Part shown: piece after piece, positions 17,161 to 31,167 of the stretch | Position numbering within the stretch: position 1 is the first letter of the stretch | Layout of the letters: every line of letters starts with the position of its first letter | Assembly: GCF_032051675.1 (NCBI RefSeq) | Contig: NZ_CP116968.1 | Location: 1,054,001 to 1,118,000 of the forward strand | DNA: 64,000 bases | Reading direction: 5' to 3' | Source: Candidatus Nitrospira neomarina | GTDB lineage: Bacteria; Nitrospirota; Nitrospiria; Nitrospirales; UBA8639 | The notes under the pieces: model-generated | What the model was told of the DNA's origin: nothing | The model's database searches: none | Seen by the model: only the letters and a program-made list of their open reading frames with translations | Program-made: the position numbers and the translations under genes

Positions 17161-20100
17161 TCAAACGATCACTTGCATATGCTGCACCGTCAGTGTGGTG
17201 GCGGTGAAGTCTTCCTCCACCAATCCCTCCAGAAGAAGCGGCCGTTCGTTTGTGAGTAACGGTCCGTATCGTTGGAATATTTCGGGGAACAGCGTGGCAT
17301 CGTAAAGTGCCGTGGTATCTTCCAGCGTGATAAATTCCATGGGTTTGCCATGTTTCGTCGAGGCGGCTTTTTCCGTGATCAGCCAGCCAACCATCATGAT
17401 CCGACGGCCGATATGCATAGCCATCTCTGTGGCGGGAGTGATTGGCAGGTTTTGCAAATGTCTCGCATAGAGCGTCAACGGATGACAACGGAGGGGGAAG
17501 CCGAAGAGCTCAATCTCATGCTGGATCAGCCGTTCTGTGTCATATTCATTCGGAATCGGGAGCAGACGAACGGACGGCAACAGCGGGGTGGCGTGTTGTG
17601 TAACGGATCTGGATGAGGAGATGCCAAAGGTTGGATGCTCGGCGTAAACCCGCCAGAGCAGGCCGGGGCGGGTGACCTCACCGGCAATAGCATCGAAGCA
17701 ACCTGCCAGAACCAATAACCGCGTCTGCGCCGGTTCGGGGTTGAGCCTGCTCAGAAAATCATGAAACGACTGAAACGGGCCGTGGCGGGATCGTTCTTCG
17801 AGAAGCCGATCAATGAATCCCCGTACGATGCCTTTGATTTGCATCAAGCCCATGCGGATGGTCGTTCCTTCTCCCTCATATGCCCATTCGCTGACATTGA
17901 TGTCCGGCGAGAGCACGGTCAATCCCATCCGGCGGGCTTCTGACAGATAGGCGAAGGTTGAATAAAACCCACCCTGGTTGCTGATGACGGCGGCCATGAA
18001 TTCCCCAGGATAATGGGCACGGAGATAGGCCGACTTAAATGACACCTGCGCATAACTGGCCGAATGCGGTTTACAAAAACTATAGCCGGTAAAACTCATC
18101 GTCATTGCCCATACCCGCTCGATCGTTCGCGCATCCACACCGCGCGCGCGCGCGCCGTCGACAAATTGGCGTTGATAATCGCGAAGCCGGCGTTGCTTAT
18201 GTTTTTTGCTGAGGATTTTCCTCAGTTGGTCGCCATCTTCCACGGAAAATCCCGCCAGACCCATGGCTACTTTGGTCACGTCTTCCTGATACACCATGAT
18301 GCCGTGGGTTTCCCCGAGCACGTCTTCCACTAACGGATGCAGGGGACGATAGGCGCCGCCATGCGCCCGCCGGACAAATTCTTGAATGAACCGGTTTGCG
18401 GCGGGACGAATCAACGATGAGACGATGACGAGATACTCAAAGACGTCCGCATGCATGCGCCGATCTGCCGGCATGCCCGTCCAGAGTTTTTTGAGAAGCA
18501 GTCGGGTGGCAGGCGATTCGATGTAAAAACATCCAATTGTCTCCCCCTGTTGAATGAGCTGTTGCGTTTTGGGGTCGGTTAATGGGTCCCAGGTGGCATA
18601 GTCGATGTGGCGGCCGGTGTGTTTTGCAATTGCCGCAAGGGCATCCCGAATGACGGCTAAGGATCGATTGCCCAGGAGATCGATTTTGACCAGGCCGGCA
18701 TCTTCCGTTTGATCCTTTTCCCATTGGATGACCGGAACACCCTTTGCGGCCACTTCCACTGGGACATAGCGGCGGAGATCGTCAGGAACAATCACGATGC
18801 CCCCGCAATGCAGCGACAGATGACGAAACCGTCCCTGAAGTTGAAGGGCGAGTCTGACGATTTCAGGCCATGGCTCGCGCAAATCGGTGAACGCCGAGGC
18901 CTCATCAAGATGTGAGTGTGGTTTTTTGCCATTGTGGGGTCTTGAAGACGGCGAAGATGGAAGAGAGCGAGGCGTTCCATTTTCTCCAATATTGGAAAGG
19001 CGGGGAGTCTGCCGAAGCGCGGATTGGCTGCATGGGGAGACAGAGGACTCTTGAGTCGGAAAATCGGTGAGCGGGAGGCGAGTCAGCAGTCGACTCACCT
19101 GTTGAATTTCCGCCGGAGGCATGCCATAGACTTTGGCGACTTCCCGCACGGCTGCCCGAAGCGCCAGCGTATTCTGATTGGCCACCATGCCGGCCTGCCG
19201 GCTGCCATAGCGCGCAAAGACAAAATCCACAATGCGGTCCCGCTCATCCCAGGGAAAATCCACGTCGATATCCGGCGGATCGTGACGCCCGGGATTTAAA
19301 AAGCGTTCAAAAAACAGATTGTGCCGGATGGGATCCACATGCGTAATCCCCAGGCAATAGGACACGATGGATGCCGCCGCCGATCCCCGGCCACAGGTGC
19401 GAGGCGCCTGGCGGACAATCTCCTCAACCACCAGAAAATAATGAGCGTAGCCTTTATCCCGGATGACGCCCAGTTCGCGTTCGATACGATCAGTCACGAC
19501 CGATGTCAGTGAGCCGTACCGCCATCGGGCCCCGTCGTAAGTCTTCTCGCGTAGCAGAGTGAAGGCATGTGGGTCGGAGAGCTGGCGAAAATTCGGAAAA
19601 ATCGTCTCTTTGAACGACCACTCGGTCTGGCAGTGCTGCGCGATCTTCCAGGTATTGGCTATCGCGTGAGGCACATGGGGAAACTGTGAATCCAGTATCG
19701 AAGGCGGCATCAACCAATGATGGGGTGCACAGCATGCCTCCGGCGGTAATTGAGAGAGGGTGGTATTGAAGGCGATCGCGCGGAGAATTTGATGGAGGGG
19801 GAACTCCTGCGGGGTTACAAAATGCACCCGGTTGGTTGCGACAGGAGGAAGGCGTGTGCGCCGGCTAAAGGCCAGGGCCTGGTGCATGAGCGCGCCTGGC
19901 GATAGCTCTACATACAGATCGCTAAGTGAGTGCCGTTTCCAGGCCGTCAGTGCAGAAAGATCATCAGAGAGAATGATCAGGCCTTTTCGGTGTTCCTGAA
20001 CCGAGGCGATGCAGTCAAAGTCGTCATCGCAATGGCGTTGGGAAAGCAGGCGGCAAAGGTTGGTATAGCCAAAAGAATCTTTGACCAGGAGCACGGCGCG

Positions 20101-20319
20101 GTGCCGGTTGTGGGTCAGTTCGGCTCCCAGGATCGGGCGTAAGCCATGGGCCTGGGCGACCTCGATAAAGCGAATGGCACCATACAGACCATTCGTGTCG
20201 GTCAGGGCAAGTGTCTCGGCTCCCTGTCCCTTTGCCGTCTGGCACAAGGTTTCCAGTGAGGACACTCCTTGCATCGGGGAGTACTCCGAATGAACGTGTA
20301 AATGGACAAAGGCTGACAT
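17161..20319 (-). CDS. dnaE2: Error-prone DNA polymerase III alpha subunit DnaE2
   Basis: 1052 residues from the ATG at 20319 (a TTG at 20334 would add five). The N-terminal PHP domain shows HLHVHSEYSP; the polymerase active site shows PDIDVDF near residue 350 and KIDLLGNRSLAVI near 540. The C-terminal OB-fold ends the protein. The shorter length and the ImuB neighbour mark it as DnaE2, the damage-inducible translesion enzyme, rather than replicative DnaE. Odd feature: a Ser/Pro-rich insertion of about 55 residues near 420-473, without similarity to the core. The gene lies 266 bp downstream of imuB on the same strand. Confidence 0.93.
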   Translation of the reverse strand: MSAFVHLHVHSEYSPMQGVSSLETLCQTAKGQGAETLALTDTNGLYGAIRFIEVAQAHGLRPILGAELTHNRHRAVLLVKDSFGYTNLCRLLSQRHCDDDFDCIASVQEHRKGLIILSDDLSALTAWKRHSLSDLYVELSPGALMHQALAFSRRTRLPPVATNRVHFVTPQEFPLHQILRAIAFNTTLSQLPPEACCAPHHWLMPPSILDSQFPHVPHAIANTWKIAQHCQTEWSFKETIFPNFRQLSDPHAFTLLREKTYDGARWRYGSLTSVVTDRIERELGVIRDKGYAHYFLVVEEIVRQAPRTCGRGSAAASIVSYCLGITHVDPIRHNLFFERFLNPGRHDPPDIDVDFPWDERDRIVDFVFARYGSRQAGMVANQNTLALRAAVREVAKVYGMPPAEIQQVSRLLTRLPLTDFPTQESSVSPCSQSALRQTPRLSNIGENGTPRSLPSSPSSRPHNGKKPHSHLDEASAFTDLREPWPEIVRLALQLQGRFRHLSLHCGGIVIVPDDLRRYVPVEVAAKGVPVIQWEKDQTEDAGLVKIDLLGNRSLAVIRDALAAIAKHTGRHIDYATWDPLTDPKTQQLIQQGETIGCFYIESPATRLLLKKLWTGMPADRRMHADVFEYLVIVSSLIRPAANRFIQEFVRRAHGGAYRPLHPLVEDVLGETHGIMVYQEDVTKVAMGLAGFSVEDGDQLRKILSKKHKQRRLRDYQRQFVDGARARGVDARTIERVWAMTMSFTGYSFCKPHSASYAQVSFKSAYLRAHYPGEFMAAVISNQGGFYSTFAYLSEARRMGLTVLSPDINVSEWAYEGEGTTIRMGLMQIKGIVRGFIDRLLEERSRHGPFQSFHDFLSRLNPEPAQTRLLVLAGCFDAIAGEVTRPGLLWRVYAEHPTFGISSSRSVTQHATPLLPSVRLLPIPNEYDTERLIQHEIELFGFPLRCHPLTLYARHLQNLPITPATEMAMHIGRRIMMVGWLITEKAASTKHGKPMEFITLEDTTALYDATLFPEIFQRYGPLLTNERPLLLEGLVEEDFTATTLTVQHMQVIV

Positions 20320-20363
20320 GAAATAATGCGGCAATAATGGTAAATTGCGTACCCATTTTTAAT

Positions 20364-20532
20364 TAAAGTATTGCTTTACTTTCTGTCCATGTTGATAACC
20401 TGTTGATTGAAGTAATGCCTTATTTTTTCTGTCTGTGGATAACTCAGCAGTTAAAGTTTTTGATTAATTTTTATCATTTAAAAATGCAAAAATCCTATTA
20501 TTCATTGGTTATTTTGCATGTTAAGTAATGCC
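20364..20532. repeat. Imperfect 44-bp direct repeats with DnaA-box-like sites between imuB and dnaE2
   Basis: Two imperfect copies with a 44-bp period start at 20366 and 20410 (both AAGTA-x-TGC-x-TTA, then CTGTC and GATAAC); a shorter third copy, AAGTAATGCC, starts at 20523. The second copy contains TGTGGATAA (20434-20442), the exact complement of a consensus DnaA box; the first has TGTTGATAA with one change. The first copy also contains AAAGTA-N6-TACTTT (20365-20382), a possible operator for dnaE2. The region is AT-rich. Confidence 0.5.
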
Positions 20533-20600
20533 GTAAAAATGAGGGTGATCATGCCACAGAGGTGTGAGCATCGCTTGAGAATTTTTCAAGATTCACCTAT

Positions 20601-21806
20601 TCAATCTAAACGAGAGGCCAGGTGTGAGCGTCCCCATTGAATGACTTTCATGCCGAACCGGGTATGCAAACGATCAAGGGCTAATGCCAATCGATGGGGA
20701 CGGGGAAGTGCCTGAGGTTCTTCCGGGTCATGTGATGGGAAGAGCGATAGTTGTTCGGGTGGAGGACGAAAGCTATTACTTCGAATGGTCAGTGAGCGCA
20801 CGCGGACGCGTCGTTGAAAGCACCGACGGAATAAGGTCTGAGCTGATGGAAGCATATCAACCTCCCAATGTGTGGGTGTGGATAAGACAGATGAATGGTG
20901 AACCGTGAGCTGATCGCTAGAGAGCAGCGTCAGCCTGAGGCGATGACACAGGCGCTGTCGCCGACGTAGATCATGGCAGAGAGAATCCAGAAGGCATGAC
21001 AGGCCTCCAAGGAGCCGGTCGTAGTCAATCGTATCCGGCTCAAAGAGATAGGAATGGGTCAGCGATAATGAGGCCTCAGGAGCCACGACCGGCAAAAAAT
21101 CAATCCCTCGTGCCCACTGGTAGAGCCGGTGGCCCCATCGACCGCAGACGGTTTCCAAGGCTTCCAAACTCACGTCGCTCACGTCGCCGATGGTCTGTAG
21201 ATTCAAATCGGTCAAGCGTGTGTGGAGTGCGGACCCTCCAGGACCTTGTAGTCCGGGAAGTATTGAGACGGGTAACGGTGATAAAAAGTCCTGTTCGGAG
21301 CCTGCCCGGACATCACAGAGTTGGGGCGGCGTGAGGATGGAGCTGGCCATTTGCGCGACAAGCTTATTGGTCCCGATACCAGCGACGGCTTGTAGCCCAA
21401 GTCGCGATGTCAGATCGCGCTCTAAACGCATCGTGGTGTCACAGGTTGCGCCAAAGAGTCGAGTGGTGCCGGTCAAATCTAAATAAAAATGTCCAGGCCT
21501 AAACGACTCCCAAATGGGTGCGATCGGTATCATGCACGACACGAGGGCATGATGGGCCTGGGCGACACGAGTAGGGTTGGGAGGCACGAGTCGAAGCGAG
21601 GGACAGCGTCGTCTGGCCCGATCGGCCTGAAGTCCGGGTATGACTCCGGCGTCTTCAGCTTCGGGAGAAACTTCACGGATGATGGCACGGGACGCATGGG
21701 CAGAAGCCACGGCGACAGGTCTGGTGCGTAAGGAGGGGGCGTCGAGGCGTGCCAGGGCCACTTCGAATCGAGGAATACATAAACAGACAATTTGACGGTC
21801 CATCAT
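20601..21806 (-). CDS. imuB: ImuB, inactive Y-family polymerase-like mutasome hub
   Basis: 401 residues of the UmuC/DinB fold. The catalytic acidic residues of real Y-family polymerases appear to be missing: the first motif reads LCIPRFEVALA instead of a D-x-D type sequence, and the second reads ESFRPGHFYLDL instead of S-x-D-E-x-Y-L-D. This matches ImuB, which tethers DnaE2 to the sliding clamp. A clamp-binding motif, QLSLF, is present at 352-356. The gene begins 7 bp after the LexA-like gene, so the two are one operon; dnaE2 follows after 266 bp. The usual partner ImuA is absent here. Confidence 0.9.
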   Translation of the reverse strand: MMDRQIVCLCIPRFEVALARLDAPSLRTRPVAVASAHASRAIIREVSPEAEDAGVIPGLQADRARRRCPSLRLVPPNPTRVAQAHHALVSCMIPIAPIWESFRPGHFYLDLTGTTRLFGATCDTTMRLERDLTSRLGLQAVAGIGTNKLVAQMASSILTPPQLCDVRAGSEQDFLSPLPVSILPGLQGPGGSALHTRLTDLNLQTIGDVSDVSLEALETVCGRWGHRLYQWARGIDFLPVVAPEASLSLTHSYLFEPDTIDYDRLLGGLSCLLDSLCHDLRRRQRLCHRLRLTLLSSDQLTVHHSSVLSTPTHWEVDMLPSAQTLFRRCFQRRVRVRSLTIRSNSFRPPPEQLSLFPSHDPEEPQALPRPHRLALALDRLHTRFGMKVIQWGRSHLASRLD

Positions 21807-21813
21807 TTTTCAT

Positions 21814-22356
21814 CTAGCCACAATGCCGAATGACTCCGATCACCACTCCTTCAATCACAAATTCATCCTGCGGAGTCACCAGAATCGGAGCCATGGTTGC
21901 GTTCGCCGGATGCAGTTCTATTTGCTCTTCTTTGTTGTAATATTTCTTAATCGTCGCCTCCTGATTCACCAGTGCGACCACGGTTTGTCCATTTCGCGCC
22001 ATTCGTTGCTTGTGTACAATCACCAGGTCACCTGGCAGGATGCCTTCATCCCGCATCGATTCACCTTTCACTCGTAATGCGAAATTGTCTCCCGTTCGCA
22101 GCATGGAAGGTGGAACCTCTACCAGCTCAGTTTGGGGAATGGGCTCAATCGGGTTGCCGGCCGCGACGATGCCGGCCATGGGAATCTGTGTCGGAGAATC
22201 CAGTTGAGAGAGGATAGCTTCGACCACTCCAGGAATCCGACGCATTCCGCATTCATAGCGGGTAATGGTCATACGAGTGGTGCGGAGACGTTCAGCTAGT
22301 TGGGTTTGGGTTAATCCCAGGCGTTGCCGGATCTGTTTGAAGGCTTCAGGTGTCAT
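21814..22356 (-). CDS. LexA-like S24 autoprotease repressor with Cro/C1-type HTH
   Basis: 180 residues. The N-terminus (1-50) is a Cro/C1 helix-turn-helix (LTQTQLAERLRTTRMTITRYE), not the winged helix of classical LexA. The C-terminus is an S24 peptidase: cleavage site A66-G67 in GIVAAGNP, nucleophile S100 in KGESMRDEGI and base K137 in ATIKKYY. By family knowledge, RecA filaments on damaged DNA trigger self-cleavage and release the operon. Its start is immediately preceded by a 19-bp palindrome and has no ribosome site, so it may be translated from a leaderless message. Operon with imuB. Confidence 0.88.
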   Translation of the reverse strand: MTPEAFKQIRQRLGLTQTQLAERLRTTRMTITRYECGMRRIPGVVEAILSQLDSPTQIPMAGIVAAGNPIEPIPQTELVEVPPSMLRTGDNFALRVKGESMRDEGILPGDLVIVHKQRMARNGQTVVALVNQEATIKKYYNKEEQIELHPANATMAPILVTPQDEFVIEGVVIGVIRHCG

Positions 22357-27422: not shown

Positions 27423-28361
27423 ATGATTACTGAATTTATCGTGACGGAGGGTGAAACCCGCAAGCGCCTTGATCAATTTTTGGTCAACCGTGAGCGGGAC
27501 ATATCCCGTTCACGGTTACAACGCTTGATTGAGTTGGGACGGATCCGTGTCAATGACAGGATGGTCAAGCCGAGTCACACCATTAAACCAGGCGATCACA
27601 TTACGATGGATGTTCCCCAGCCGGGACCCCTCCTGGTCGACGGGAAGGCTATGACATTGGATATCTTACACGAGGATGAAGTTCTCCTGGTGTTGAACAA
27701 GCCTGCGGGTGTGGTGGTGCATCCCGCGGCAGGGAACTGGGAGGGCACCGTGATCAATGCGCTGTTGGCCCATATTCCCAAGCAGGCCGATGCAGAAATG
27801 ATCATTGAGAAAAGAGCGGTTCCACGGCTGGTTCATCGACTGGATAAGGACACCTCCGGAGTGATGGTGGTCGCCAAAACCGATCATGCCCATCGTACTC
27901 TGGCGGCACAGTTTGAACAACACTCGATCAATCGGATCTATGAGGCATTCGTCTGGGGGGTACCCCGGCAGGAGCAGGGGGTGATGGAGTTGCCCATCGG
28001 GCGGGATCGGGGAGAACCGAAAAAGGTTTCATCCAACACCGCACAGCCACAACGAGCGGTCACGGAGTATCGGGTGGAACAGGTGTTTGGTGACCTGGCC
28101 TCACAGGTCGTGTTGTTCCCACGCACAGGGCGTACACATCAGCTTCGGGTTCATTTGGCGTCCTTAGGGTGTCCCATTTTGGGGGATGAAACGTATGGCG
28201 GTCAGAAAGTATGCCGGATTACGGAGATCGACATTCCACGGGTGATGCTCCATGCACGCACATTAGGATTCCAACATCCCGTATCCGGGGTATTTCAGGA
28301 ATATTCCGTAGGCTGTCCGTTGGACATGCAAGGGATCTGTCAGTCGTTACTCAATAAATAA
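27423..28361 (+). CDS. rluD: 23S rRNA pseudouridine synthase, RluD type
   Basis: 312 residues. An S4 RNA-binding domain occupies about 11-70, followed by the RluA-family catalytic domain with the signature HRLDKDTSG (catalytic D141). It isomerises specific uridines of the large ribosomal RNA. The length and S4 domain match RluD, though RluA-family members can be confused without a phylogeny. It is isolated, with long flanking gaps. Confidence 0.88.
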   Translation: MITEFIVTEGETRKRLDQFLVNRERDISRSRLQRLIELGRIRVNDRMVKPSHTIKPGDHITMDVPQPGPLLVDGKAMTLDILHEDEVLLVLNKPAGVVVHPAAGNWEGTVINALLAHIPKQADAEMIIEKRAVPRLVHRLDKDTSGVMVVAKTDHAHRTLAAQFEQHSINRIYEAFVWGVPRQEQGVMELPIGRDRGEPKKVSSNTAQPQRAVTEYRVEQVFGDLASQVVLFPRTGRTHQLRVHLASLGCPILGDETYGGQKVCRITEIDIPRVMLHARTLGFQHPVSGVFQEYSVGCPLDMQGICQSLLNK

Positions 28362-28676: not shown

Positions 28677-29831
28677 TCACGCTTGGCGGACAGATTTGGC
28701 TTTATGTTGGATGGTAAGAATAATAAATTCAGCAGGTTTGAGTGGAGCGAACCCGATCATGATGTTGACGTTCCCGGCAGTTTGGTCAGCGGATGAAATG
28801 GTATCCGGTCCGCATTTGACAAAATAGGCCTCCTGGGATTTTTGTCCTTGAAAGGCCCCCTGCCGGAAGAGTGATTGGAGAAATACGTCAATTGGTTGCC
28901 GAATGTGAGCCCACAAGGTTTGGTCGTTCGGTTCATCTACTACCCACCCTAATCCCTGTTGTATGCTTGATTCTAGAAACAATGCCAGACGCCGGATGGA
29001 AAGATACCGCCACTCTCTGTTGGATGACAGGGTTCGTGCACCCCACGCGACAACCTGTGACGGAGAGGTTTGCCGGATTGGATTGATACCCAATTGAGCG
29101 AGTTGTCCCATTTCCGGTTCCGTCAGTGTCTGCTCGATACCCTGAACGCCATGAAGGATGGCCGTCTTTCCTGCCGGGGCTTTCCATACTCCTCGTTGTT
29201 GATCCGTCCTGACCCATACCCCAGCCATGGCTCCGCTGGCAGGGATGTGCAGAGGTGCTTTCTTTAGTGGCTGAGGGCCTTGGACATGCGGAACGTACAT
29301 GGCCACATTTGGATGGTGAATGCCCGTTTGCTGATTTACCCAGGTGGTCAGAGCCCTGACCGTTTGTCGAGGGGCATCGCGTTGAGGGACATCCAGGACA
29401 TACATCGCACGGTGTTTGGTAACAAAAGCAATGGCTGCGTGCATGACTTTGGTCGCATGGGGATCCGGGAGCTCTTTGGTTTGAGGAATAAACAAAATAT
29501 TGAAATCCCCTATGCGGTCGAGAAGGGAAAGGCCTTGGAGAAATGGGGACCCGCCTTTGATCGGTTTCGATCCAATACCTACCACCCAAATGGCCTTTCC
29601 ACCATTGTCAAAAAACTGTTTGATGCAAAGGGAGGAAAGGGCTGGTTTTTCAAGCCCCCCATATTCTTTCTCAAATGCTTCCCATGTCAGGACCTGTTGT
29701 GGAGACGTCATCGACCCTTTGGGAAATGAGCCGATGATGGCCGCGGTTGAAGTGGACGCCGCTTCGATTACAGGAGGGACGAACGATGGTTTGTGTATAG
29801 ATGCGCCCGGAATCGAGTGAGTTTTTTTCAT
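28677..29831 (-). CDS. Phage-type contractile tail sheath protein, stand-alone
   Basis: 384 residues. Sheath hallmarks run along the whole length: an N-terminal IPGASIHKP...STSTAAIIGSFPKG block, FFDNGGKAIWVVGI, the C-terminal ARTL...EWRYLSIRRLALFLESSIQQGLGW block, then EPNDQTLW, and PLKPAEFIILTIQ. It is shorter than T4- or P2-type sheaths because the central surface domain is small, resembling sheaths of compact injection systems. No tube, baseplate, spike or ATPase gene lies beside it. A polytopic membrane protein lies 63 bp upstream on the same strand. A tail remnant, or one part of a dispersed contractile injection system, are the options. Confidence 0.88.
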   Translation of the reverse strand: MKKTHSIPGASIHKPSFVPPVIEAASTSTAAIIGSFPKGSMTSPQQVLTWEAFEKEYGGLEKPALSSLCIKQFFDNGGKAIWVVGIGSKPIKGGSPFLQGLSLLDRIGDFNILFIPQTKELPDPHATKVMHAAIAFVTKHRAMYVLDVPQRDAPRQTVRALTTWVNQQTGIHHPNVAMYVPHVQGPQPLKKAPLHIPASGAMAGVWVRTDQQRGVWKAPAGKTAILHGVQGIEQTLTEPEMGQLAQLGINPIRQTSPSQVVAWGARTLSSNREWRYLSIRRLALFLESSIQQGLGWVVDEPNDQTLWAHIRQPIDVFLQSLFRQGAFQGQKSQEAYFVKCGPDTISSADQTAGNVNIMIGFAPLKPAEFIILTIQHKAKSVRQA

Positions 29832-29894
29832 AAGAAATTGTGTTATCTCCTTCTGTGGAACTTAGTACTCAGGAGGAACAGCGTATTATAACCT

Positions 29895-31019
29895 TCATCG
29901 GCTTGCTAGGGTTTCCGCATAGGGCTCTCCTCGACGGAACTGATTTTCCAAAAAAAAGGCTGCGACGGTCAGACATTGCAACCCAAACGGCAAATAACCG
30001 GCATAGCCCAGGATCGGCATTTCCCCCATCTGGAGTGCGTGGACGTAGGGTATTGAATATTCCCAATGGACGAGGCTATAAGCATTCCACATCTCCCAAA
30101 ATCCTCCACAGACCAAGGCTGCCAAACCGGAAAGGACCACGGGACTCCAGTTTCCTTGAGTCAATGGTGACAGAATGCTAGGTACCCTCCGAATTATTTG
30201 TATGCCTATCATGATCAGAAGCGGGCTCACCCAGAGAAGAGAAAATAGCAGCGTGGGCCAGATCCCAATCATCAGAAGCCCGAAACAACCAAGGCTGAAC
30301 ATCAGCCATCCGGTGTTGGGGGCATTCACTGACGAGATGGCCAGCCAATTTTCAAATGGTACCCTTATCCAGGAAACGGAAGACAGGTATTCATAAGTAC
30401 CCAGAACGGCGGGTAGAACCGTCGAAAATGAAAGAGTGAACCAGGCATAGGTTAGAAGCAAGGAGGTTGGTGCCAGGCCCACATAGTGCCAGTTTTGTAC
30501 ATATTGATTGAGGTATTCAAACATCCACCAGAAGCCCGCGCTGAGGAGAAAGAGTTTGAAAAGATAAGCGGGCTGATTGGTGATCATGCACCTGCCGGTT
30601 TGAGAAAAACTTAAGGCATTGATGACCACGATGTAGCCGAGCCAGAGCAGGGGAAACGTGTAGGGTTGCCATTCTAGGAACCAGGAAAAACGCGACCAGG
30701 AGAGGATTGAAGCGAAAGTCGTCCATCCTACGGCCATCCAACCCCACCAGGGAAACCGTTTGCCGGAAGTGGGAGGAAATGTGTGGTGACGCACGCTTGT
30801 GCTCAAACGCAAAAGAAAAGGTGTCAGCGTTCCAACAATGATCAGGGTCGACAGTCCAAATATGGGCCAGGAAAGAGAGGCGTCTCCCGGCTGTAGGGGA
30901 ATGGGTAAAAGAGTCAAATCGTGAGGAAGAGCTTGGCCAGATAAGACCATACCCAGAGGAGGCAGCCCAAGAAGCAAAAAAATAAAGATGGTGCCGTTGA
31001 TGACCTTTGTGGAAGACAT
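29895..31019 (-). CDS. Polytopic membrane protein with internal repeat, function unknown
   Basis: 374 residues with about nine to ten hydrophobic helices. Two similar segments point to an internal duplication: one contains F-W-W-M-F-E-Y-L-N-Q-Y with N-W-H-Y after it, the second G-F-W-E-M-W-N-A-Y with H-W-E-Y. Each offers conserved Glu, Asn, Trp and Tyr at a membrane edge. I do not recognise the family; the layout recalls lycopene-cyclase-like or other isoprenoid enzymes, which is a guess. ATG at 31019 is chosen over a GTG at 31064. It is upstream of and co-directional with the tail-sheath gene. Confidence 0.6.
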   Translation of the reverse strand: MSSTKVINGTIFIFLLLGLPPLGMVLSGQALPHDLTLLPIPLQPGDASLSWPIFGLSTLIIVGTLTPFLLRLSTSVRHHTFPPTSGKRFPWWGWMAVGWTTFASILSWSRFSWFLEWQPYTFPLLWLGYIVVINALSFSQTGRCMITNQPAYLFKLFLLSAGFWWMFEYLNQYVQNWHYVGLAPTSLLLTYAWFTLSFSTVLPAVLGTYEYLSSVSWIRVPFENWLAISSVNAPNTGWLMFSLGCFGLLMIGIWPTLLFSLLWVSPLLIMIGIQIIRRVPSILSPLTQGNWSPVVLSGLAALVCGGFWEMWNAYSLVHWEYSIPYVHALQMGEMPILGYAGYLPFGLQCLTVAAFFLENQFRRGEPYAETLASR

Positions 31020-31167
31020 GGGAGTGTAATAAAACAGATATCTGCGTGTAGCGATTACAGGCACAGATGAAGCCCTGGTTCAGCTTAAACCAGACCGGAC
31101 TTCAGAGCCACCGGTAAAGAATCTGAGTCAAGATGGAATAGTCTTGGTGAGACCCGGCTGAATTCTT

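What the first reader, a model, noticed from the sequence alone, without database searches (positions are those of the whole stretch)
28677..31019. Lone contractile tail sheath next to an unknown membrane protein
A well-preserved compact sheath protein stands without tube, baseplate or ATPase genes, 63 bp downstream of a polytopic membrane protein. A stand-alone sheath is hard to explain unless other parts are elsewhere or it has been repurposed.
Basis: partly seen in the sequence, partly recalled or inferred. Interest (0 to 1): 0.5.

Follow-up and report, generated by a model that had tools for sequence, protein, structure and literature searches.

The report
Orphan contractile sheath without its machine
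This Nitrospirota bacterium keeps an intact, selected gene for the outer sheath of a phage-tail-like injection machine although the other machine parts looked for are missing, and a parallel case in another bacterial genus suggests that such a leftover sheath can be kept for a second job.

Summary
ORF 28677-29831(-) is a complete 384-residue contractile sheath (AlphaFold2 pLDDT 86.5; best structural match the Streptomyces coelicolor injection-system sheath, Z 38.7). The single-contig 4.8 Mb genome has no other sheath and no tube, gp25, spike, baseplate-J or cap match; control genomes do match. It does not look decaying: dN/dS is 0.19-0.34 among six syntenic orthologs, like the neighbouring rluD. 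Thirteen lone sheaths of one Nitrospirota family form one clade (100/100) nested among sheaths of extracellular contractile injection systems (eCIS). They sit beside unrelated housekeeping genes (rluD, trpA, secF). The neighbouring membrane protein is probably no partner: it occurs in many genomes without the sheath, and the rluD/membrane-gene site exists without it. Achromobacter shows a likely route independently: ten species carry a compact sheath at the site where others have a long sheath followed by an eCIS cluster; scraps of lost cluster genes remain in some. The best reading is a domesticated eCIS sheath that no longer injects and probably works in the cytoplasm as a self-associating or protein-binding scaffold; that role is inferred. 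Slow decay and a decoy role remain possible. I found no published description in the open-access library searched.

The parts
28677..29831 (-). Lone compact contractile-sheath gene, 384 aa: low-confidence N-arm (1-15), subtilisin-like and C-terminal sheath domains, putative attachment helix (residues 304-323, assigned by place in the model), C-terminal arm strand (370-377)
29895..31064 (-). Polytopic membrane protein, 389 aa, frequent in the family, no Pfam/NCBIfam/PHROG match; neighbour, probably not a partner
27423..28361 (+). RluD-type pseudouridine synthase, convergent neighbour that marks the locus; also beside the lone sheath in G027, there on the same strand
29832..29894 (.). 63-bp gap with an AAGGAG stretch before the sheath ATG; no consensus promoter or terminator inside

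Best explanation
The gene is a domesticated sheath protein of an extracellular contractile injection system (eCIS). Shown: it is a full sheath by sequence and predicted fold, the tube, baseplate, spike and cap families that would go with it are not found in the genome, the gene is under purifying selection, and its family is one clade nested among eCIS sheaths and lying beside housekeeping genes. Inferred: an ancestral eCIS was lost except for the sheath, which lacks the large outer domain at about residue 90; Achromobacter shows such a reduction with intermediates. Inferred, less certain: without tube and baseplate it cannot inject; expressed from housekeeping neighbourhoods, it acts in the cytoplasm as a self-associating or protein-binding scaffold. 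The conserved C-terminal domain, attachment helix and C-arm would be the working surfaces, while the N-terminal arm that knits successive discs is under weak constraint in the family.
For: Fold: AlphaFold2 pLDDT 86.5, pTM 0.87; Foldseek TM 0.80 and VIA Z 38.7 to the Streptomyces coelicolor CIS sheath. No machine: one sheath; no tube, gp25, spike, baseplate J or cap, with G024, G016, G240 and G187 positive for tube, gp25, baseplate J and cap. Tube absent in 11 of 15 lone-clade genomes, gp25 in 14 of 15. Selection: dN/dS 0.19-0.34 over 15 sheath pairs, rluD 0.20-0.36 over 15 pairs; 114 differences to G029 fall 27/25/62 by codon position, and neutral placement leaves no stop in only 23 of 2000 runs (2 of 2000 for G037). 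Descent: the 13 lone sheaths in the 64-row tree form one clade, 100/100, nested in eCIS sheaths. Position of 15: rluD locus 8, 3' of trpA 3, 3' of secF 2, upstream of rluD 1, elsewhere 1. Independent parallel: Achromobacter compact sheaths, dN/dS 0.135-0.415, at the collinear site of the eCIS cluster.
Against: Patchy: 15 of 48 family genomes carry the clade (a fragment in G038 may be a sixteenth). The G033 ortholog is disrupted, and G044 has a stop in the N-terminal stretch. Four of the 15 genomes hold some tube-like gene, G023 with a separate eCIS. The Nitrospirota loci keep no eCIS scraps beside the sheath, so their reduction is inferred by analogy. Of the eight outside rows first labelled orphans, three (L084, L116, L122) come from genomes with a tube match, and the Achromobacter genome G420 has a gp25 match on another contig. 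Compact sheaths also occur inside complete CIS clusters, so compactness itself is no sign of domestication. Loss of the N-arm motif in the window's own subclade argues against an ordinary sheath polymer. No expression or biochemical data.
Confidence: 0.72

Rival explanations
1. Slowly decaying remnant: the eCIS was lost and the sheath is merely the last gene to go.
For: G033 is disrupted and G044 lacks the N-terminal arm; carriage is patchy; Achromobacter compact sheaths have higher dN/dS (0.135-0.415) than full-length ones (0.035-0.081).
Against: dN/dS far under 1 and like rluD; mostly intact frames at 44-51% identity to the window, some in other genera; neutral placement almost always makes stops; presence at different operon ends is unlike a remnant.
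Confidence: 0.12
2. Decoy or dominant-negative: the lone sheath poisons the assembly of foreign contractile tails (phage or CIS) in the cell.
For: Keeps the C-arm and the putative attachment helix that meet neighbours and tube, with a poorly constrained N-arm, a plausible chain terminator; patchy carriage would fit defence.
Against: Phage sheaths are distant: the ten listed of 269 phage records match at 25-28% identity, and 0 of 269 cover 80% of the query; no PADLOC match; neighbours are housekeeping genes.
Confidence: 0.08
3. Part of a scattered contractile machine whose tube and baseplate are too diverged to recognise, or are supplied by phages or plasmids.
For: G043 has a lone tube-like gene and G031/G044 a protein with two tube-like domains.
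Against: The window genome and ten other lone-clade genomes have no tube match although the same profile finds tubes at E 1e-28 to 1e-48 in relatives; four further CIS profiles also fail in the window genome.
Confidence: 0.06
4. Functional two-gene unit with the upstream membrane protein.
For: 63-bp spacing, same strand, neighbours in the window's subclade.
Against: The membrane gene is in 30 of 48 genomes and away from the sheath in G021, G023, G028, G044 and G045; the sheath lies next to trpA or secF elsewhere.
Confidence: 0.02

Closest known systems
Cytoplasmic CIS of Streptomyces (S. coelicolor; S. lividans SlpS)
   Same: Nearest solved sheath structures; a CIS found inside the producing cell. 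In S. lividans a sheath protein binds ribosomal protein S16 directly (PMC10286715, abstract and passages), a precedent for a sheath with a cytoplasmic partner.
   Different: Streptomyces has sheath-tube modules and baseplates (entry titles; passages); here the sheath is alone.
eCIS such as AlgoCIS, Afp, PVC
   Same: Homologous sheath, nesting among eCIS sheaths; attachment helix and handshake as described for AlgoCIS (PMC8894135, passages).
   Different: No tube, gp25, spike, baseplate J or cap match.
R-type bacteriocin sheaths (diffocin CD1363, pyocin R2)
   Same: Two-domain sheath of similar size; [quoted passage not shown]
   Different: Those belong to tailocins with tube and baseplate; identity to them here is 14% and 23%.
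Polysheath of recombinant phage sheath gp053
   Same: Shows that a sheath alone can self-assemble into tubes (PMC6357053, abstract in search listing only).
   Different: Recombinant expression of a phage protein; not a bacterial gene kept on its own.

Membership tests
Contractile tail sheath (Pfam Phage_sheath_1 / Phage_sheath_1C) | C-terminal sheath domain above the curated cut-off | tested here: met
   43.7 bits against 26.9
Contractile tail sheath (Pfam Phage_sheath_1 / Phage_sheath_1C) | Subtilisin-like sheath domain above the curated cut-off | tested here: inconclusive
   29.2 bits against 31.4; structure supports it
Contractile tail sheath (Pfam Phage_sheath_1 / Phage_sheath_1C) | Sheath fold over nearly the whole chain | tested here: met
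   Z 38.7, 332 residues aligned, rmsd 2.7 to 9gts
Contractile tail sheath (Pfam Phage_sheath_1 / Phage_sheath_1C) | N- and C-terminal arms of the inter-subunit handshake conserved | tested here: inconclusive
   C-arm kept (identity 0.83 against 0.96), N-arm (1-24) not (0.23 against 0.77), 7 diverse lone rows of 13 against 19 eCIS rows
Contractile tail sheath (Pfam Phage_sheath_1 / Phage_sheath_1C) | Polymerises and contracts | not testable with these tools
   needs biochemistry or cryo-EM
Complete extracellular contractile injection system | Tube protein (PF06841) | tested here: not met
   none in own genome at E up to 1
Complete extracellular contractile injection system | Baseplate gp25 (PF04965) and baseplate J (PF04865) | tested here: not met
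   none in own genome
Complete extracellular contractile injection system | Spike (PF04717) and cap (PF14065) | tested here: not met
   none in own genome
Complete extracellular contractile injection system | CIS-type AAA ATPase | not tested
   no genome-wide search was made
Type VI secretion sheath TssC/VipB | TssC profile above the curated cut-off | tested here: not met
   17.1 bits against 25
Prophage gene | Other phage structural genes nearby | tested here: not met
   seven neighbours scanned match housekeeping or unknown-function Pfam families or nothing; no CIS homolog in the window but the sheath; other window ORFs were not scanned against phage families

The most novel reading that the evidence does not exclude
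Bacteria repeatedly domesticate the sheath of a lost injection machine: the outer domain is deleted in frame, the rest of the cluster goes, and the bare sheath is kept as a steadily made cytoplasmic protein, perhaps a scaffold on the translation or secretion apparatus, as hinted by its places beside rluD and secDF and by the S16-binding sheath of Streptomyces lividans.
Probability: 0.3. Interest if true: 0.78.

Novelty: new variant of a known kind. Interest (0 to 1): 0.58.

Why it matters
A recent metagenome survey reports that all its CIS clusters hold at least four structural genes (PMC12210884, passages), so sheaths that survive alone may escape counts of that kind (inference). If selected, a bare sheath means that part of an injection machine does something useful by itself. 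That makes testable whether sheath proteins have cytoplasmic partners in general, and it gives a route by which such machines are taken apart and reused.

Tried and rejected
Pairing with the membrane protein: rejected by its distribution and by sheath-free sites. Its predicted model is only fair (pLDDT 64.8), so I did not search with it. Pfam, PHROG, NCBIfam and PADLOC gave no family for it.

Phage origin: the phage collection gave only distant, partial matches.

One origin for all lone sheaths: the eight rows from outside the clade need 7 changes on the tree, of which starred branches force at least 3, so separate events are likely; three of them sit on long branches whose place is unsure, and three (L084, L116, L122) come from genomes with a tube match. 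I chose the 64 rows of that tree from the sheaths found; G038, G043, G033, G015, G018 and G016 and many eCIS sheaths were left out.

N-arm loss as a trait of the whole clade: only partly true. L038, L040, L034 and G043 keep PGVYI[EQ]E, L035 has PGVDIQE, the six rluD-locus rows have PGAS[IV]H, L037 and L039 are degenerate and L036 lacks it.

Two sheath genes in G043: first suspected, then rejected; the fragments next to rluD and to the membrane gene overlap at 98.6% identity.

A consensus promoter or terminator between membrane gene and sheath: none.

Literature: nine searches and passages of six papers (with 96, 74, 86, 87) showed no description of a lone, selected sheath; the library holds open-licence papers only.

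A notebook entry counted the tube as absent in 12 of 15 genomes; the correct count is 11 of 15 plus G231.

Full report
What is there. The window is part of a single 4.8 Mb contig (G000). Its relatives are Nitrospirota: contigs of Nitrospirales bacterium NPIRA02 and of two Nitrospirota MAGs have the same lengths as contigs of G023, G045 and G043. ORF 28677-29831(-) encodes 384 residues and matches sheath profiles (Pfam; PHROG) and solved eCIS sheaths. A membrane-protein gene ends 63 bp upstream, and a convergent rluD lies downstream. The predicted structure is confident (pLDDT 86.5, pTM 0.87; residues 1-15 under 50). It aligns over 332 residues to the sheath of the Streptomyces coelicolor injection system (Z 38.7, rmsd 2.7; Foldseek TM 0.80).

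The machine is missing. The genome has one sheath match and no tube, gp25 or spike match even at E 1. Across genomes, tube matches are absent in 11 of the 15 that carry this sheath clade. The four exceptions are G023, which has a separate eCIS; G043, with a lone 149-residue tube-like gene on a short contig; and G031 and G044, where two tube-like stretches lie in one frame. The G031 protein has an N-terminus that looks like a twin-arginine signal (my reading); the G044 one was not read. gp25 is absent in 14 of 15, G023 excepted. Baseplate J and cap proteins are absent in the six lone-clade genomes tested, G000, G029, G047, G021, G028 and G027, and in G231. The four control genomes G024, G016, G240 and G187 matched. 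The spike was searched in the own genome only, and an ATPase not at all.

It is selected, not rotting. For six orthologs at the rluD locus dN/dS is 0.19-0.34 (15 pairs); rluD itself gives 0.20-0.36 (15 pairs) and the membrane gene 0.21-0.35 (10 pairs). Differences concentrate in third codon positions, and random placement of the same number of changes leaves the frame without stops in 23 of 2000 runs for G029 and 2 of 2000 for G037. Against this, the G033 ortholog is disrupted and lies over two contig ends, and G044 has a stop in the N-terminal stretch, so that its frame starts at about column 16 of the family alignment.

Distribution and place. A search of 48 family genomes found matches in 20. 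By identity and length I assign 15 of these to the lone clade; G038 has an end-of-contig fragment, and G024, G016, G018 and G015 match at 36-43% identity (G024 and G016 have CIS genes beside the sheath; G018 and G015 were not examined). Eight of the 15 lie at the rluD locus; three directly 3' of trpA (gaps of 31 and 33 bp in G045 and G031); two directly 3' of secF (69 and 104 bp); one 32 bp upstream of rluD; one elsewhere (gaps from ORF coordinates). The names trpA, secF and neighbours are my reading of the sequences; only rluD was checked by Pfam. The 13 near-complete proteins form one clade with 100/100 support among 64 sheaths.

The membrane protein looks like a bystander. It is present in 30 of 48 genomes. 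In G042, G032, G039 and G045 rluD and the membrane gene face each other with no sheath between (in G042 and G045 a small unrelated ORF lies there), and in G045 the sheath is at trpA instead.

What is kept and what is lost. Comparing 7 diverse lone sheaths with 19 eCIS sheaths, overall identity is 0.47 and 0.54. The N-terminal 24 residues fall to 0.23 against 0.77, while the C-arm (361-372) stays at 0.83 against 0.96. In sheaths the arms knit subunits together and a helix of domain I holds the tube (PMC6088184, passages; PMC8894135, passages). I assign that helix to residues 304-323 from its place in the model (inference). The large outer domain that many eCIS sheaths carry at about residue 90 is absent.

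An independent parallel. In 43 genomes of the genus of L128 (Achromobacter, by its record title), 17 match the compact sheath found there; one of them, G449, only distantly (24%). Ten match along nearly the whole compact protein and six in two pieces inside frames of 772-842 residues. I fetched all ten compact loci and four of the six long ones; the ones compared lie at the same, collinear site. The four long loci each have a full tube gene next to the sheath. In one of them, G455, I also found baseplate-J and eCIS-core matches downstream. Nine compact and four long sheaths were compared; L215 was dropped because the script's motif missed it, and its frame is open. 371 alignment columns are missing from all nine compact forms, which lie on one side of a branch. 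dN/dS is 0.135-0.415 in the compact and 0.035-0.081 in the long forms, so constraint is relaxed but present. The stop reported inside the G445 match lies two residues before its end. Scraps of 29 and 41 aligned residues from the start of the tube gene follow the sheath in two of ten compact loci, L214 and L215. Scraps of the eCIS-core frame lie in four, L208, L210, L211 and L216. G420 itself has no tube match but one gp25 match on another contig, not examined. Further compact sheaths, in a gammaproteobacterial MAG, an acidobacterial MAG and a Lysobacter, lie in genomes without a tube match; three other candidates (L084, L116, L122) lie in genomes with one.

Interpretation. The simplest account is domestication: an eCIS was lost and the compact sheath was kept for another use. 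What it does is open. A sheath can self-assemble alone (PMC6357053, abstract in the search listing), although recombinant diffocin sheath stayed monomeric (PMC6088184, passages). A Streptomyces lividans sheath protein binds ribosomal protein S16 (PMC10286715, abstract and passages). The housekeeping neighbourhoods would fit steady expression, but this is inference. I favour a cytoplasmic scaffold or binding protein (about 0.3 for that specific role, 0.72 for the domesticated, non-injecting sheath).

Limits. Many of the genomes are fragmented drafts without names, in which parts could be missing, but the window genome, G029, G021, G028 and G047 have at most seven contigs. The literature library holds open-licence papers only, so 'not in print' means not found in the nine searches listed.

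Noticed in passing
L161-L167 and L170 (Nitrospirota family f2 genomes): Short frames of 128-153 residues that match only the C-terminal domain of the sheath; the ORF maps of six of these loci showed no CIS cluster to the eye. Possibly another reuse of sheath pieces.
   Followed up: partly
L225:5476-6672(-) (G031); similar match at G044:C74:13024-13779: A 398-residue protein with two tube-like (gp19) stretches and a twin-arginine-like N-terminus (my reading); no sheath was seen on its contig.
   Followed up: partly
L227:2308-2757 (G043:C92): A lone 149-residue tube-like gene on a 4 kb contig.
   Followed up: partly
L047 (G023:C6): An eCIS lies next to the trp operon, the operon after which three other genomes carry the lone sheath; its own sheath is not the close relative in the tree.
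   Followed up: partly
L208-L222: Achromobacter: compact sheath in some species and long sheath with eCIS genes in others at one locus, with scraps of eCIS genes beside some compact ones.
   Followed up: yes
L160:8619-9815(-) (G231): A separate lone sheath of 398 residues beside a 191-residue unknown protein; the genome has no tube, gp25, baseplate J or cap match.
   Followed up: partly
window 17161-22356: DnaE-type polymerase, ImuB-like and LexA-like genes in a row, as in SOS mutagenesis cassettes (recalled, not searched).
   Followed up: no
window 29895-31064: Polytopic membrane protein in 30 of 48 family genomes without any Pfam, PHROG or NCBIfam match.
   Followed up: partly
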